A stretch of DNA of 64,000 nt from Antedon mediterranea (Eukaryota > Echinodermata > Crinoidea > Comatulida > Antedonidae). A program made the translations under genes and the position numbers. This document shows, one piece after another, positions 41,301 through 57,361 of the stretch (position 1 is the stretch's first letter; each line of letters begins with the position of its first letter). The DNA lies in contig NC_092675.1 of the NCBI RefSeq assembly GCF_964355755.1, forward strand, positions 31,210,912-31,274,911, given 5' to 3'. Below the pieces are notes generated by a model. The model searched no databases and had not been told where the DNA came from. It worked only from the letters and a program-made list of their open reading frames with translations.

Positions 41301-44300
41301 TTCAACTCAATATTCTATGTGGTTATGTTTTAGTTAAGAATAATAATAACTTCATTCAAAATCTCAGATCAAATTATAATGTCCTACTATTTTATTTTTA
41401 GAGTAAATGTCGCTGTGGTGCAACTTCAGAACCTTTCCCTTTTACACAAATGGTGAATTATGTATCTTGTAAAGCATTGTGGTAAGTCATCAAAATAAAC
41501 TGAAATAGAAACAAGCAATTTAGCAAGAAATGTGATAAGTCATCAAATAACAAACTTGCTTTCTTGCTAATGAAAGTCTAAGATAAAAAAGAAACCTTAA
41601 GCCGATTTTCCACTAGGCAAATTTTTTTAGCGCAAATCAAAAGTGTTAGCTTATACGCATGCGTAGAGAGGGATTTGGAAGATGGAAACGTGAATACGTA
41701 TACGTATAAGCTGATGCTTTCAATTCGTGCGAACAAATTTGGCTTTAAACTTACAAATGATAATCAGCTTACTTTATTGACTCTTCCCCCCCCCCCACCC
41801 CCACAGATTACTTAATTGTATTTATGTATGTATGTTATTATATTGTGGAAATAAAATAAAATTGAAAATTAGTGCAGAACATGTTTCAGTATACAGTCAA
41901 CTCTCCTAACACCGCACCCCTTTGGGCTGGCCAAATATGTCTGGTTTTCCGGAAGGTCTGGTACTCAGAATGTGCTTTTAATGGTAAAGGAGAATTTGGT
42001 ACCTTTTGGACTTCGTGAAAAGTCTGGGAGAAAAGTATTGGGAGAGTTTCTGGTTTTCAGAGAGTCCGATATTGGGAGAGTTGACTGTAATGAATTTCTC
42101 AGATTTACACCTCTGAGCTTCCCAATTTGTTCCTTGGAAGCTAATTTTAAAATATTTGATCTTTAAAGTTCTGAATTTCGGAAAAGTAAAATAAGACGAG
42201 AACCACGAACTATCAACTTTGGAGAACTGTTGTGTTACGCAAATGCTGTCGGTGATAGACGTGACTGTCCTGTGAGTTTTTGATTATAGTAACTTCTTTA
42301 GAATTGTACGAAATAAATCTTGAACTGAAGATCATTTATAGACAAAATTAATCATTGTATATTACATTGTTATTTGTAGAGTAATTGTGGAAAGAGAATT
42401 ACAATACAGCGAATAGTAACAAATAGCCCTGAAGTTGGTAAGAAATCTTTTCTATGATTAATAAATAATATACAGTGCTGCCAATTAAAGCACCCTCTCC
42501 TGACTAAGTACAGTGAGCAGTGTTCACTAGTCCTTATCTGAAAAGGCAGTGAGTGCTATTGACATGGATTACCTTCCTACTGTTTTAACTGCTCAGCTAC
42601 AAACCCATATAATGACTTTATGTATTGGATTATTTAAAACTCTGTTTACACTATCAAACTTATCACATATATAAGCATATCACTACCATATATGGGCACA
42701 TCACTTTTTTTTGTCACTTAAGGTTTGATAGTGTAGACAGAGCTTTAGATTATATATAATTATTTTTGTTCACCAGTAAGTGTAGGTCTGGTATGGGATA
42801 CTGATAGACCAAGTGTAGATCATATAATGGACGTTATTAACTGTCTTGGAACTACAGTAATGCTTAAAGATGTAAGTAATAATTGTTATACATTTTGTTG
42901 ACAATAAAGCTTTTGCAACAATTATTGTATCATATTTACTATGTTGAGTAACATTGAACAATGAGTATGCATATTTAAACCATGGGTGTCAGATATGGAG
43001 TGCAAGCAATCTTTTCCATCCCCCCCCCCCTCTTTTTTATTCTAAATAATTATAGGTTTAGTTTGTTATTTTTCAACTAAATGAAAACATTTCTTCTGGT
43101 TTCGATTCGTATAATAATAATATAAGTAGTTCTTTGATAGTAAACCAATAAAACTTACGTTGGCAAGACAGTTTCGTCTAGCTGTCAGCTTGACTTCTTC
43201 AGTTGCTATGATGCGTTATGGCGCCGATTGGTCTCCTTTCCAGCCACTAGATGATTTTGTTGTGTAGCCTAGGGGACCAGTCGTCGTCAGAAGCTGATCG
43301 TAAATGTGAGATAGTTGGTGCGCGCCTTCGTCTCTATTCATCTTTGTATTTTTATTTTGCTTTCTTATGCTGATGCTTTCTTTAATTTTACGTTTAAGCC
43401 AAACTTGTTCTTTGTGTAGTATCTCTATCTTATCCCAGTTAGGTATGTGGTTGTGTGTGGTCATATGGTCCGTGATTGCTGATTTATGTAAAATGGAGGA
43501 CGAAACTTTCCGTGATGCACGCGTCTGCATGTTCTGTGTGTTTTCCTCAACATCTTTCTTGTGCTCTTTAATTCTGGTTTTGAGTGCCCTACCCGTTTCC
43601 CCAATGTACACCATCTCACAGTTGGTGCACCCCACTTTGTAGACGACACCACAGGAATCCTCTTTGCATGCTTTATCTTTCGGTCGGACGATTAAGTTTT
43701 TAATTTTGTTAGATGGTTTAAAGTATGTTCGTATGTTATATTTTTTAAATGTTCTCTTGATTTTCTCTGACAGGCCTTGAATATATGGGATGGATATCGA
43801 CCCTCTTATATCTTCTGTTTCGGGTTGTTTGTCCGTTTTTTGTTTATCTAGGTTACGTTGTACCTTTCTAATCGTCCATGTAGGGTAGTTGCATTGTTTA
43901 AGTGAAGTATGTATCATCTCAGTTTCGTTCTGTTTGTCTGGATTATTTGTGATTATCGTGTTACATCTGTGTAGAAGTGTGCGGATAACGGATAACTTGT
44001 GTTGTAGAGGATGATGTGAGTTAAAGTCCAAGTATTGATTTGTGTGGGTGGCTTTCCTAAAAACTTTAGTGTTGATGTTGCCTTCCCCATCAACTAAAAT
44101 TAGCGTATCCAAGAATGGGATAGAGTTGTCTGTTAAGGACATTTCTTCGCAAGTGAAATTAATGTCATCATCGATTTTGTTTAAGTGTTGTAATAATGGT
44201 TGTGTCGCATCCTTGGGAATTATTGTTATAATGTCATCTACATACCTTTTCCACATCCTCGGTTTTATGTCGGTGTGAGCTGTAGTTATTGCCTCATTTT

Positions 44301-47300
44301 CCAGCCATTCCATAAATAAATTCGCAACAATCGGAGAACATGGACTACCCATGGCCATACCTGAATTTTGCTGGTAGATATCCCCTCTGAAGCTGAAATA
44401 TGTGGTGGTGAGGACCAATTGAAGCAATTCCATAATGTCGTTGATATGTAACCACGTTCTCTCTGATAGTTGTTTATCACAGTGTAAGCGTTCTTCAATT
44501 ATTTTGAGGGACTTGTTGACTGGTGTTTTGGTAAATAATGACACTACATCATAAGAGACCAATGTTTCATTTGGCTGTAACTTAATGTCCTTTATGTCAT
44601 TGACAAATTCAAGCGAATTGGTAACATGATGGATGCTGTTTCCAACTAGTGGTACGAGAATGTCGGCTAAGCTTCGTGACAAATTGTACATAATGGATCC
44701 CGTATAATCGACTATGGGACGTAACGGATTATTCATTTTATGGATTTTTGGTGTGCAGTAAATTCTTGGTGTGATGTCCGACGTGGGGTACAAGTAGTGT
44801 TTTTGTTTGACAGTGATTTTCTTTTCTTTGAGGAGTCTCGTGATTACAGTGATAAGTTTTTTCTTGTAGGATGAGGTTGGATTTTTCTTTAATAGCGTGT
44901 ATGTATCAGTATCTGAAAGCATGTTTCTCACTTTCTCATCATATTCTTTAGTGTTCAGAATTACTGTGGCCCTACCTTTATCGGCCGGTAATACCATAAT
45001 GGTTTTATCTTTCGCGATGTTGTTCAAAGCCTGCATCTCTTCCTTGGTTACACACAGAACATGCAGACGCGTGCATCACGGAAAGTTTCGTCCTCCATTT
45101 TACATAAATCAGCAATCACGGACCATATGACCACACACAACCACATACCTAACTGGGATAAGATAGAGATACTACACAAAGAACAAGTTTGGCTTAAACG
45201 TAAAATTAAAGAAAGCATCAGCATAAGAAAGCAAAATAAAAATACAAAGATGAATAGAGACGAAGGCGCGCACCAACTATCTCACATTTACGATCAGCTT
45301 CTGACGACGACTGGTCCCCTAGGCTACACAACAAAATCATCTAGTGGCTGGAAAGGAGACCAATCGGCGCCATAACGCATCATAGCAACTGAAGAAGTCA
45401 AGCTGACAGCTAGACGAAACTGTCTTGCCAACGTAAGTTTTATTGGTTTACTATCAAAGAACTACTTATATTATTATTTCAACTAAATGTAGTATTATTT
45501 TCTAAGATAGTAGGTAATATTTGTTACTTTCCATATATTTTCAATAATACAAATATTAAACTTGAGAAATGATGTATGTATGTATTATATTAGAGAGTTC
45601 CATCTCAAATGCTAATTTATCATGATCATCATACTTGTCTCAATTTTAACCCTCTTCTAACATCCCTGACAACACCCATGCTAACTGTATAAATTACTTT
45701 CTTTAGATATTTTATAATGTGCTGGATGATAAAACAAGATCTACTAAGTTCATCCTGGTAGGGGTCGTTACCTACTATGGAAAACATTATTCAACCTTCT
45801 TTTACAACACTCGACTTAAAATATGGGTTTATTTTGACGATGCATCTGTAAAAAAGGTGTGTCCATTTTATTATTTTTTTAGTTTACATCTAAGACTTTG
45901 TTAAAGAGAACAAGCAAAATAAGAAAATCTTATATTGCGTCGGTTTCCATCACAAATTAGATGCTCAAGGCACATTGACACAACAATGCAATGAATGAAA
46001 TCATGTAGTAAAGTCTATGTCTAATGATAAAGGTCTTAAGATTTGATTTAAAGGAGTTAATGCAGATTTAACATGTTCGAGAAGTTAACAAAGTTGTATC
46101 ATTATCATGATACTAGTAAATATACTCAAAGGCAGGGTCAAGTCAAGTATCATTTATTATCATTTGTTTTAGGAAAAACATAGAAATTCTGTTTGCTCTG
46201 TTGGCGGAGCACAATATCCAACGGACACAACACGAACTCAAAAACAAAAACATTACAAAAAAAAGTGTCTACATCATATTTAAGGGTTCGAGTGTATGAA
46301 GCATCCCAGTACAACACCATATGTATAGATGTGTGCAGTAACAACGAACAAACCTACAATTAATTGAATATATTGTCTATTACGTGACTAGCTTACCTGG
46401 GTAAACTTATATAGGCCTTTTCCCCTTTGAGGGGAGAACATATCGAAAAGTATAAATATTCTTAGCATTTCCCTCCAAGCTAGTGGTAATTTAACATGTT
46501 ATTTAAAATGTGCAGGTTGGGCCTAATTGGAAAGATGTTGTGGAGAGATGTCGCAAGGGTCACTACCAACCACTGCTACTGATTTTTGCTGACCCAAATG
46601 GACGTGAAGTTTCTATGGATACAGCACCAACTGATACGATTTTTGTCAATGGACCTTCAGACTCTGATGGTAATTTTGTTTTTCTGGCCTAAATTTGAAA
46701 ATGTGTAACAAAGAGTTGTTAATTTATAGTTATTTCTTGTTTCCATTTCAATTGTGTTAAGTTGTTTTTATTTTAGTTATTTTATTTCATTCACATCCAA
46801 CAGCGGAAAGCCCGCCACTTACAGAACGGAACATACAACAATAATAAGACAAAAAAATATATAAAATAGCAAAAAACCTTAATTTTACATTTAAAGGAAC
46901 TAAGAGTTTTTTCAGCTATAAAATTGACAAAATCTGATTTAATTTATTTTGTCTATTTACAGATTTTTCTGATGTAGATACTTTTGATGGGCAAGAACGT
47001 GAAGTGTACAAATCAGTGAACCCTCTGCCTGTTAATCATAACCACTATAATAGTACCAGCAGTTCTGCAAGCACACACAGTTATAAAAGCTTCACCTCGT
47101 TTGATTCTGCTAATACTGTTATCTATAAGCCATCTCCTGATGACCTTAAAATGTCAAATTATGACAGTAGACCGCCTAAACCTGCACGATCAAACTCATC
47201 GGAAATGTTTCGTCCGGTCAAACCAATACCAGAGTTCCAACCTCAAATTCAATCGGTTGATGGAAATTTTAATGGAAAGACATCTCGAACGGCAACTGCC

Positions 47301-52316: not shown

Positions 52317-54251
52317 TAATGAACGCTTGTAAATACAGTAGGCTTAGAAAATGTATACAGTGTAGATAAGACCTTACATTGATAACATTATTCAATGTAA
52401 AACAGTATTTCACAACATTTATATTTTTGTTTGGCTAATGGTATTCTTTTGAATAGTTTGATTTCAAGTTAGTTTTTATCGTTTGCTAAAATAGTTGCGT
52501 TTTTTTAGTTGATTTCAAAATCAGTTCGTATGCTATTCTATACTAAGTTTAAGTATAGTTCTGCATTATTATATATTTTTAAGTATGAAGTGTTATCAAC
52601 TCATTGTATAGAATACATTTGTGTATATAGATAGTGAATATAAACCGATTTGTAGTATTCCTTTAAAATTATAATAACAATTCCTAGTGTAGACACCTTG
52701 ATGATAGGGTTACCGTTTGCTTTAGATATATTTAATGAGAAAGCCTTGAAAACTGTAAATAGATAATTTTATTTAAAGCACAAAATGTTATATTGTTTAT
52801 AAATTTTTAGATTATATGGTGCATTATTTAATATAGGGTATAGACGTGTTGCAGAGTAAATGCTCTGATAAGCATTTTGTACAATTATAGCCGCGATGAA
52901 ACGTTCACCATCCCACTCATAAACATTCATTATTTGTATACAGACCTTTAACATTCAATAAGTTTAAATGCTTAAAGCGATACTATCTTAAGCTTGTCAG
53001 AGCTGGTGTGCATTTCGGTAGTGTGAACGCATCAATGAAGACAAGTTGGAAACCTTACAGTATGTGTATGTGAATAGGTAGTGTGAACGCATCAATTCTT
53101 AAAACTTTTATCCCTTGAAACAACCTTAAAATGAAGTATAGAGATCATAGTCTTGTATAATAATAATATAACATTTGAAAAGCCATTTAATCCGATATAA
53201 TCTATTCATCTAACTCTCACGAAATTATTAAAAACAGGATTCAAAACATTGCAATCATATTATCCCTTATATTGTTGTCTTGGATTCAAAGCAGGTTAAT
53301 TTATATCTAGCATTGTTGATTGTATTTTAATGTAAATATTGTTAAAAAATAATCCTAATTATCAGATTATGCCAATGTTTCTATAGTGTGCCACAATTTG
53401 CCTTATTAGTCCAAGATAATTTACATGTGCTTCTATTATTAACCAAAGAATTTGTAGTACTGTATCTGTACTTAGTGGTAATGGAATTTTCCCCACAAAA
53501 GCTTTCTCTAAAAGTCTGAAAAGGGTTTAGCAAATGAATATACATAAGAGTGGGTTACATCAACTGTTTTCTGTAAGCCAGTTCTTTAGCTGAATTGTAT
53601 CGACTTCAACTCGCAGCTCTCTGTTTGAAACCCATCAACCTTGTTCGATATATTGCAATCTCTCAGATTTTCAGAGAAAGTCTTTGAAAAAAAATGTTAC
53701 ATTCCCTGGGTACTTGCTTACCAATCGCTGGCCACTCGGCTACCAATCTATGCTGGAGTAAAGTGGACATAACACTAAACCATTCAAACACGCACACCAC
53801 TTTGTGATCACATATTTTATTTTCACTGTTAAGCTCTGTCTACACTATCAAATTTTCTGTGACAAAAATGTGATGTGCCCATATATGGACATGGTGATGT
53901 CATATCACTACCAAATGTGGGCATATAACTATCATATTTGGGCACATCACACTTTTTTTTGTCCAACTAGTTTGATAGTGTAGACAGAGCGTAAGAAACA
54001 CTGTAGTATTTATACAATTATAAAAAGTTCTTGATTTGAATTCCATGTTGTTACATTTAATACTAGTGTTTTAACTTTAATTTAACTTTCTAGTTTAAAC
54101 AATGGCAGAGTACTAATGGCATCAAATGTAGTACTAATGGCATCAAATGTAGGTTATTCACAGTTTATTATAAAAAAGATGTTGTTACACTTGTAATGCA
54201 ATTGAAATAAAAACAGTTATCTTGATTTTATTTTACCTTAATCGGTAAAAC
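52317..54251. other. USP 3' UTR and intergenic sequence
   Basis: Begins with the USP 3' UTR. Holds one M1 MITE, a doubled GGTAGTGTGAACGCATCAAT near 53018-53090, and a doubled AGTACTAATGGCATCAAATGT at about 54110-54155. No gene is supported. Confidence 0.5.
53833..53990. mobile_element. MITE family M1, copy 8 (best preserved ends)
   Basis: GCTCTGTCTACACTATCAAA at the left and TTTGATAGTGTAGACAGAGC at the right are a perfect 20-bp inverted pair. The core has CATATCACTACCAAATGTGG and GGGCACATCACAC. Confidence 0.9.
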
Positions 54252-54309
54252 CAATACCAGATAATAATATAAGTAGTTCTTTGATAGTAAACCAATAAAA
54301 CTTACGTTG

Positions 54310-54353
54310 GCAAGACAGTTTCGTCTAGCTGTCAGCTTGACTTCTTCAGTTGC
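54310..54353 (-). ncRNA. Candidate hammerhead ribozyme (palindrome, left arm)
   Basis: Identical to the 44-nt motif at 43163-43206, minus strand, directly after the stop codon of the left-arm ORF. Confidence 0.55.
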
Positions 54354-54362
54354 TATGATGCG

Positions 54363-55580
54363 TTATGGCGCCGATTGGTCTCCTTTCCAGCCACTAGATG
54401 ATTTTGTTGTGTAGCCTAGGGGACCAGTCGTCGTCAGAAGCTGATCGTAAATGTGAGATAGTTGGTGCGCGCCTTCGTCTCTATTCATCTTTGTATTTTT
54501 ATTTTGCTTTCTTATGCTGATGCTTTCTTTAATTTTACGTTTAAGCCAAACTTGTTCTTTGTGTAGTATCTCTATCTTATCCCAGTTAGGTATGTGGTTG
54601 TGTGTGGTCATATGGTCCGTGATTGCTGATTTATGTAAAATGGAGGACGAAACTTTCCGTGATGCACGCGTCTGCATGTTCTGTGTGTTTTCCTCAACAT
54701 CTTTCTTGTGCTCTTTAATTCTGGTTTTGAGTGCCCTACCCGTTTCCCCAATGTACACCATCTCACAGTTGGTGCACCCCACTTTGTAGACGACACCACA
54801 GGAATCCTCTTTGCATGCTTTATCTTTCGGTCGGACGATTAAGTTTTTAATTTTGTTAGATGGTTTAAAGTATGTTCGTATGTTATATTTTTTAAATGTT
54901 CTCTTGATTTTCTCTGACAGGCCTTGAATATATGGGATGGATATCGACCCTCTTATATCTTCTGTTTCGGGTTGTTTGTCCGTTTTTTGTTTATCTAGGT
55001 TACGTTGTACCTTTCTAATCGTCCATGTAGGGTAGTTGCATTGTTTAAGTGAAGTATGTATCATCTCAGTTTCGTTCTGTTTGTCTGGATTATTTGTGAT
55101 TATCGTGTTACATCTGTGTAGAAGTGTGCGGATAACGGATAACTTGTGTTGTAGAGGATGATGTGAGTTAAAGTCCAAGTATTGATTTGTGTGGGTGGCT
55201 TTCCTAAAAACTTTAGTGTTGATGTTGCCTTCCCCATCAACTAAAATTAGCGTATCCAAGAATGGGATAGAGTTGTCTGTTAAGGACATTTCTTCGCAAG
55301 TGAAATTAATGTCATCATCGATTTTGTTTAAGTGTTGTAATAATGGTTGTGTCGCATCCTTGGGAATTATTGTTATAATGTCATCTACATACCTTTTCCA
55401 CATCCTCGGTTTTATGTCGGTGTGAGCTGTAGTTATTGCCTCATTTTCCAGCCATTCCATAAATAAATTCGCAACAATCGGAGAACATGGACTACCCATG
55501 GCCATACCTGAATTTTGCTGGTAGATATCCCCTCTGAAGCTGAAATATGTGGTGGTGAGGACCAATTGAAGCAATTCCAT
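54363..55580 (-). pseudogene. Truncated Penelope RT/GIY-YIG ORF, left arm
   Basis: 405 codons matching the C-terminal two thirds of the 43216-45036 ORF. It keeps [18 protein letters not shown] and the whole GIY-YIG domain but lacks RT motif A and everything upstream, so it cannot encode an active RT. The frame is undamaged, which indicates a recent insertion. Confidence 0.85.
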
Positions 55581-55581
55581 A

Positions 55582-56886
55582 ATGTCGTTGATATGTAACC
55601 ACGTTCTCTCTGATAGTTATTGTTATCTGAAACTATCAGAGAGAACGTGGTTACATATCAACGACATTATGGAATTGCTTCAATTGGTCCTCACCACCAC
55701 ATATTTCAGCTTCAGAGGGGATATCTACCAGCAAAATTCAGGTATGGCCATGGGTAGTCCATGTTCTCCGATTGTTGCGAATTTATTTATGGAATGGCTG
55801 GAAAATGAGGCAATAACTACAGCTCACACCGACATAAAACCGAGGATGTGGAAAAGGTATGTAGATGACATTATAACAATAATTCCCAAGGATGCGACAC
55901 AACCATTATTACAACACTTAAACAAAATCGATGATGACATTAATTTCACTTGCGAAGAAATGTCCTTAACAGACAACTCTATCCCATTCTTGGATACGCT
56001 AATTTTAGTTGATGGGGAAGGCAACATCAACACTAAAGTTTTTAGGAAAGCCACCCACACAAATCAATACTTGGACTTTAACTCACATCATCCTCTACAA
56101 CACAAGTTATCCGTTATCCGCACACTTCTACACAGATGTAACACGATAATCACAAATAATCCAGACAAACAGAACGAAACTGAGATGATACATACTTCAC
56201 TTAAACAATGCAACTACCCTACATGGACGATTAGAAAGGTACAACGTAACCTAGATAAACAAAAAACGGACAAACAACCCGAAACAGAAGATATAAGAGG
56301 GTCGATATCCATCCCATATATTCAAGGCCTGTCAGAGAAAATCAAGAGAACATTTAAAAAATATAACATACGAACATACTTTAAACCATCTAACAAAATT
56401 AAAAACTTAATCGTCCGACCGAAAGATAAAGCATGCAAAGAGGATTCATGTGGTGTCGTCTACAAAGTGGGGTGCACCAACTGTGAGATGGTGTACATTG
56501 GGGAAACGGGTAGGGCACTCAAAACCAGAATTAAAGAGCACAAGAAAGATGTTGAGGAAAACACACAGAACATGCAGACGCGTGCATCACGGAAAGTTTC
56601 GTCCTCCATTTTACATAAATCAGCAATCACGGACCATATGACCACACACAACCACATACCTAACTGGGATAAGATAGAGATACTACACAAAGAACAAGTT
56701 TGGCTTAAACGTAAAATTAAAGAAAGCATCAGCATAAGAAAGCAAAATAAAAATACAAAGATGAATAGAGACGAAGGCGCGCACCAACTATCTCACATTT
56801 ACGATCAGCTTCTGACGACGACTGGTCCCCTAGGCTACACAACAAAATCATCTAGTGGCTGGAAAGGAGACCAATCGGCGCCATAA
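55582..56886 (+). pseudogene. Truncated Penelope RT/GIY-YIG ORF, right arm
   Basis: The true element sequence starts at about 55634. The first 17 codons read the spacer and the tail of the other arm and are not Penelope protein. From [11 protein letters not shown] to the end it equals the left-arm ORF. Motif A is missing, so it is inactive as an RT, though the GIY-YIG domain is complete. Confidence 0.85.
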
Positions 56887-56895
56887 CGCATCATA

Positions 56896-56939
56896 GCAAC
56901 TGAAGAAGTCAAGCTGACAGCTAGACGAAACTGTCTTGC
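56896..56939 (+). ncRNA. Candidate hammerhead ribozyme (palindrome, right arm)
   Basis: The fourth identical 44-nt copy, plus strand, nine nt after the right-arm stop codon. Confidence 0.55.
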
Positions 56940-57133
56940 CAACGTAAGTTTTATTGGTTTACTATCAAAGAACTACTTATATTATTATACGAATCGAAAC
57001 CAGAAGAAATGTTTTCATAACAATACCAGATACCATAATTAAAATAAATAGCCTCGCCATTCAGGTGTGCCTTAATACAAATTATTTTCTTTTTGTTTTC
57101 AATAATCTTTCTCTTTCAACTTAATTATAATGT

Positions 57134-57361
57134 AGTCAACTCTACCAATACTCTATTTCTATGAAAACATGAAACTCCCTTTTCTTCAGAGCCAAAAGGC
57201 CCAACTCCTTTTTACCATTAAAACACATTCGAAATACCGGACTTTTCAGAAAACCAGACATATTAGTCCCGCCCATCAGGGGTACATATTAGTCCCGCCC
57301 ATCAGGGGTACATATTAGTCCCGCCCATCAGGGGTACATATTAGTCCCGCCCATCAGGGGT
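57134..57361. mobile_element. Pogo/Tigger-like MITE, copy 3, broken by a 26-bp repeat
   Basis: The left end AGTCAACTCTACCAATACTC and the interior (GCCAAAAGGCCCAACTCC, ACCATTAAAACACATTC, CAGAAAACCAGACATATT) match the copy at 41894 and the one at 14154 in part. From 57258 the unit ACATATTAGTCCCGCCCATC-AGGGGT is repeated four times and the right terminus is lost. The array grew from within the MITE. Confidence 0.75.

What the first reader, a model, noticed from the sequence alone, without database searches (positions are those of the whole stretch)
54252..57032. Penelope insertion shaped as a 1.36-kb-arm near-perfect palindrome with one target-site duplication
Two 5'-truncated copies meet head to head with a 12-nt spacer, and the pair is bounded by one 12-bp duplication (CAATACCAGATA). 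That means the inverted dimer integrated as a unit, rather than as two independent insertions. Both arms break at exactly the same RT codon, which fits template switching or copying back during target-primed reverse transcription. Inverted Penelope ends are known; a fully symmetric dimer this long and this young is less usual, and should be unstable or cruciform-prone.
Basis: seen in the sequence. Interest (0 to 1): 0.75.

Follow-up and report, generated by a model that had tools for sequence, protein, structure and literature searches.

The report
Two-armed Penelope retrotransposon insertion
A mobile element of the Penelope type has left two head-to-head copies of itself at one chromosomal cut; this two-armed form is the normal product of these elements in this genome, and the arms of every measured pair start at two different fixed points about 30 bases apart, a clue to how the poorly understood element inserts.

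Summary
Two 1,358-bp arms face head to head (99.93% identical, one mismatch) around a 12-nt spacer, inside one 12-bp duplication. Genome-wide, this is how the element normally inserts. I measured 41 head-to-head pairs of this family and 28 of a second Penelope family. In all 69 (one old pair is poorly resolved) exactly one arm carries the tail and the other stops about 30 nt short. The tail spans the two reverse-transcription start sites known for a lizard Penelope enzyme. Cuts lie 12-13 bp apart at a symmetric AAC-N12/13-GTT target, and both arms come from the same source (134 of 135 variable-site comparisons agree; 24% disagree between insertions). Best explanation: both cut strands are primed, one from each start site, and the two cDNAs are joined head to head by microhomology. 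Copying one arm back from the other is contradicted. Near-equal arm lengths form a real minority class in this family (6-7 of 31; about 0.7 expected); a shared broken RNA template would explain the focal one but is not shown. The palindrome is an ordinary member; the tail rule is the interesting part.

The parts
54252..54263 (.). left target-site duplication CAATACCAGATA (last 3 bp overlap the arm)
   Evidence: exact match to 57021-57032; preceded by AAC, as in the family-wide target motif
54261..55618 (-). no-tail arm: 5'-truncated element, sense on the minus strand, outer end at start site B
   Evidence: outer end at reference 2935 as in other no-tail arms
54363..55616 (-). open frame, 417 aa: C-terminal part of RT (YVDD) plus GIY-YIG-type endonuclease
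   Evidence: intact 870-aa frame in L041 has Pfam RVT_1 E=5e-9, and its C-terminal 190 aa match GIY-YIG at E=6e-4, just under cut-off
55619..55630 (.). 12-nt filler ATTGTTATCTGA between the arms; not native element sequence
   Evidence: native sequence at this point is GATAAAC|AACTATC; 11 nt of its reverse complement match the tandem duplication junction CAGATA-ACAAT (post hoc)
55631..56988 (+). tail arm: 5'-truncated element, sense on the plus strand
55631..56886 (+). element part of the open frame (438 aa stop to stop), C-terminal RT plus GIY-YIG-type endonuclease
56989..57018 (+). 30-nt tail ACGAATCGAAACCAGAAGAAATGTTTTCAT, on this arm only; ends at start site A
   Evidence: present on exactly one arm in every measured pair
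57021..57032 (.). right target-site duplication CAATACCAGATA
43081..45049 (-). second insertion in the window: tail arm (1,969 nt)
45050..45477 (+). second insertion in the window: no-tail arm (428 nt); duplication TTTCAACTAAATG at 43071-43083 and 45477-45489

Best explanation
This is one insertion of a canonical (RT + GIY-YIG) Penelope-like element made by two-ended target-primed reverse transcription. The endonuclease, probably as a dimer, cuts both strands of a symmetric AAC-N12/13-GTT site and leaves 12-13-nt 3' overhangs. Each 3' end primes cDNA synthesis on element RNA from the same source, one from start site A (giving the tail) and the other from start site B, 30 nt further in. The two cDNAs, each ending where its RT stopped or ran off, are joined 5'-truncated end to 5'-truncated end by microhomology or short filler. 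Gap filling of the overhangs gives the duplication. In the focal copy both cDNAs stopped at the same nucleotide, most simply because both were copied from the same RNA broken in the loop of a small hairpin (AAC|AAC). Shown: anatomy, one-tail rule, duplications, target motif, same-source arms, excess of near-equal arms in this family. Inferred: dimer, cut order, single RNA molecule, RNA break, joining pathway.
For: Exactly one tail per pair: 41 of 41 in this family (old L060 poorly resolved) and 28 of 28 in a second family. If the two ends chose freely, at most half would be mixed; 69 of 69 has probability about 1e-21. Duplications mostly 12-14 bp around pairs. Symmetric target: A/A/C before and G/T/T after the duplication in both families. 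Arms of a pair agree at 134 of 135 comparisons at segregating sites, against 24% disagreement between pairs. Junctions overlap by 1-7 nt or hold short fillers. Near-equal breaks: 7 of 31 within 15 nt against 0.68 expected; 6 of 30 and 5 of 29 after removing doubtful cases. A purified lizard Penelope protein cuts and extends both strands, and its two RT start sites bracket the tail (PMC11167929).
Against: In vitro the lizard enzyme showed no start-site difference between top and bottom strand (PMC11167929), so strict pairing of A with B is not explained by published biochemistry. Near-symmetry is not seen in the second family. The focal filler is 12 nt, longer than most. The focal RNA hairpin is weak (z = -1.1). 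A few insertions have only one detectable arm (for example L033, L036, L037, L040, L052).
Confidence: 0.72

Rival explanations
1. Snap-back or self-priming: one cDNA folds back on itself and copies its own arm, giving the inverted repeat (the reader's 'copying back'; close to the self-priming model of PMC3846280).
For: Several near-equal pairs have hairpin-like centres with loops of 7-14 nt (L010, L012, L032, L042), and L053 has a 17-nt filler that is an inverted copy of its own neighbouring arm. Head-to-head palindromes are reported in rotifer Penelopes.
Against: A copied arm could not gain or precisely lose the 30-nt tail, yet every pair has one arm with it and one without, both ends precise. 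The longer arm is sometimes the no-tail one (L010, L012), which cannot template a tail. Brief snap-back during end joining remains possible.
Confidence: 0.1
2. Near-equal arms arise by a short cis snap-back at one cDNA end followed by exchange onto the other, independently primed cDNA (polymerase-theta-like joining), rather than by run-off from one broken RNA.
For: Loops of 7-14 nt and the templated L053 filler; the focal filler resembles target-site sequence.
Against: In the focal copy both arms break at exactly the same nucleotide, so no native loop is present.
Confidence: 0.3
3. Two independent insertions, or a nested insertion, that happen to be head to head.
For: Penelope elements favour AT-rich targets.
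Against: One 12-bp duplication around the pair, none at the centre, and dozens of pairs with the same design.
Confidence: 0.01
4. Assembly artefact (folded read or collapsed allele).
For: Long palindromes are a known hazard; no reads available here.
Against: Arms differ by one base and by the tail; flanks are distinct; no N in the window; other loci have the same architecture with unequal arms.
Confidence: 0.03

Closest known systems
Penelope/Poseidon-type elements with inverted pLTR and tail (rotifer Pen2a_Av and others, PMC3846280)
   Same: Single RT + GIY-YIG frame, 5' truncation, head-to-head inverted part, about 31-nt tail on one of the inverted ends, 8-10-bp duplications, palindromes at inverted junctions.
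   Different: There the tail is called optional, examples are few, and self-priming on an antisense template is proposed. Here the one-tail rule has no clear exception in 69 pairs, duplications are mostly 12-14 bp, and the inverted arm is often long rather than a pLTR.
PAc (Poseidon of Anolis carolinensis) in vitro system (PMC11167929)
   Same: Two adjacent internal RT start sites bracket the tail; both target strands are cut and extended; dimer predicted; AT-rich target with a T-rich cut motif.
   Different: No strand difference in start site was seen in vitro; joined two-ended products were not described in the parts read. A hammerhead ribozyme is reported there; none was found here by Rfam.
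LINE-1 twin priming
   Same: Second cut strand primes on element RNA, giving an inverted segment within one duplication, joined by microhomology.
   Different: From general knowledge: in twin priming the second strand primes internally at a variable place and is occasional; here both strands start at fixed sites near the RNA 3' end and pairs are the usual form.

Membership tests
Penelope-like elements (canonical, endonuclease-containing) | Reverse transcriptase domain with YVDD-type core | tested here: met
   RVT_1 E=5.4e-9, above Pfam cut-off; YVDD present
Penelope-like elements (canonical, endonuclease-containing) | C-terminal GIY-YIG endonuclease in the same frame | tested here: met
   Pfam GIY-YIG E=6.2e-4, 20.5 bits against cut-off 22.6, so just below cut-off; motif [20 protein letters not shown] visible
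Penelope-like elements (canonical, endonuclease-containing) | Partial tandem copies forming pseudo-LTRs | tested here: met
   L041 carries 314 nt of pLTR plus tail directly before the full internal region; family 2 likewise
Penelope-like elements (canonical, endonuclease-containing) | 30-40-nt tail at some 3' ends | tested here: met
   30 nt in this family, about 33-36 in the second
Penelope-like elements (canonical, endonuclease-containing) | Target-site duplication and 5' truncation | tested here: met
Penelope-like elements (canonical, endonuclease-containing) | Hammerhead ribozyme in the pLTR (common, not universal) | tested here: inconclusive
   No Rfam hammerhead match in 56840-57020 or in L041/L073; a degenerate CTGAAGA...CGAAAC stretch is visible by eye only
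LINE-1-type twin priming | Second priming at variable internal RNA positions | tested here: not met
   Second arm always starts at start site A or B

The most novel reading that the evidence does not exclude
Penelope insertion is inherently two-ended: two RT protomers always engage one RNA at its two adjacent start sites, one per cut strand, so head-to-head pairs are the obligate primary product, and symmetric palindromes are the cases in which both protomers ran off the same RNA end.
Probability: 0.35. Interest if true: 0.75.

Novelty: new member of a known kind. Interest (0 to 1): 0.52.

Why it matters
How Penelope-like elements insert is an open problem, and the published self-priming idea was built on their inverted structures. 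An essentially exceptionless one-tail-per-insertion rule, a symmetric target and same-source arms argue against full-arm self-copying. They turn the question into a concrete test with the existing purified protein: does the second strand always take the other start site, and on the same RNA?

Tried and rejected
Rfam scans gave only spurious microRNA hits on the palindrome centres and no hammerhead. Full-arm copy-back was rejected by the tail rule. RT stalling at the native hairpin of the focal break was considered; the hairpin is weak and the stop lies in its loop, so an RNA break there is preferred but unproven. Pyrimidine-A steps at breaks are only weakly enriched (8 of 25 against 17% background). 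Target-derived filler: 11 of 12 nt match the tandem duplication junction, seen in about 1 of 3000 random fillers, but the idea was formed after looking. Symmetry was tested in family 2 and not found. L097 looked like a tail/tail exception but its right end is an internal pLTR running on into the frame. Craig et al. 2021 is not held, so prior mention of the tail rule there cannot be excluded. A structure prediction of the endonuclease part did not finish. PDB sequence search gave nothing.

Full report
What is there. The window lies in a 354-Mb genome (C6:31210912-31274911). At 54252-57032 two copies of a 5'-truncated element meet head to head. The arms 54261-55618 and 55631-56988 are 1,358 nt each with a single mismatch (54801/56448) and a 12-nt spacer. 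CAATACCAGATA is exactly repeated at 54252-54263 and 57021-57032.

What the element is. [quoted passage not shown] A direct pLTR precedes the frame. It is a canonical Penelope-like element. The focal arms keep only the C-terminal 417 codons and cannot be autonomous.

The family picture. A pattern at the element end occurs 97 times (50/47 by strand, control 0). I fetched and mapped most of these loci. Nearly every insertion is a head-to-head pair with outward 3' ends inside one duplication of mostly 12-14 bp. In 41 of 41 pairs exactly one arm ends with the tail and the other ends about 30 nt earlier; L060, an old copy, is the only poorly resolved one. Some apparent single arms hide a very short partner (L043, L048, L067; read from the flanks printed). 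A second Penelope family, about 64% identical, gives 28 of 28 (counting L091-L093 as one insertion and leaving out L097). If the two ends chose start sites independently, at most half of the pairs would be mixed.

Target and templates. Oriented by the tail, the uncut site reads AAC [12-14 bp] GTT in both families. This is a symmetric site cut on both strands with 3' overhangs, whose 3' ends abut the arms. At 15 sites that vary among insertions, the two arms of one pair agree in 134 of 135 comparisons, while arms of different pairs disagree in 24%. Both arms therefore derive from the same source transcript or RNA molecule, or, less likely, were homogenised later; the 31 arm-only changes seen argue against wide homogenisation.

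Why the arms are equal here. Break points of the two arms are mostly unequal (differences up to 2.3 kb), but an excess of pairs breaks within 15 nt: 7 of 31 with both arms above 140 nt, against 0.68 expected on shuffling (no shuffle of 100,000 reached it; still p=0.0017 after removing two doubtful pairs and the focal one). The focal copy is the longest and the only long exact one. Its shared break lies in the loop of a small native hairpin (AAC|AAC), compatible with two cDNAs running off one RNA broken there (inference). Other near-equal pairs have 7-14-nt native loops, and L053 has a 17-nt inverted templated filler, so short snap-back during joining also occurs. The excess was not seen in the second family.

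Mechanism. Copying one arm from the other is contradicted because no arm can gain or precisely lose the tail. Two-ended target-primed reverse transcription explains the outward 3' ends, single duplication, symmetric site, fixed outer ends and variable inner ends. It agrees with in vitro work on a lizard Penelope: both strands are cut and extended, and two adjacent internal start sites bracket the tail (PMC11167929). What that work did not report is strict use of one start per strand. Rotifer work noted the tail on 'one of the inverted pLTRs' and proposed self-priming on antisense template (PMC3846280). In the papers I could read the rule is not stated as general; Craig et al. 2021 and the older structural papers were not available.

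Verdict. The palindrome is real and is an ordinary, if unusually symmetric, member of a standard insertion class. The one-tail rule is the part worth following.

Noticed in passing
window 43071-45489: A second head-to-head insertion of the same family, arms 1,969 and 428 nt, duplication TTTCAACTAAATG, one tail.
   Followed up: yes
L070-L102 (second Penelope family): Tail-arm break points cluster at reference 2695-2735 in 13 of 28 pairs (1 of 28 for the no-tail arm), giving a pLTR-length inverted arm. This suggests a defined RNA 5' end, or priming at the upstream pLTR of the same RNA.
   Followed up: partly
L022, L023, L024, L026 (C5) and L091-L093 (C3): Same insertion with the same duplication at several places: segmental copies of a host block carrying a Penelope insertion.
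   Followed up: no
L015 and L024: Two insertions break at the same element position (GCTTACACTG, reference 1560) with unrelated sequence upstream.
   Followed up: no
L053, centre near 806-821: The filler is a 17-nt inverted copy of the adjacent arm, a templated snap-back footprint.
   Followed up: partly
window 57258-57361: Four perfect copies of a 26-bp unit (ACATATTAGTCCCGCCCATCAGGGGT) shortly downstream of the insertion.
   Followed up: no
window 53829-53994: Short nested inverted repeats (24 bp) just upstream, containing AACTAGTTTGATAGTGTAGACAG. Similar sequence flanks the insertions at L045 and L047, so it looks like another repeat used as a target.
   Followed up: no
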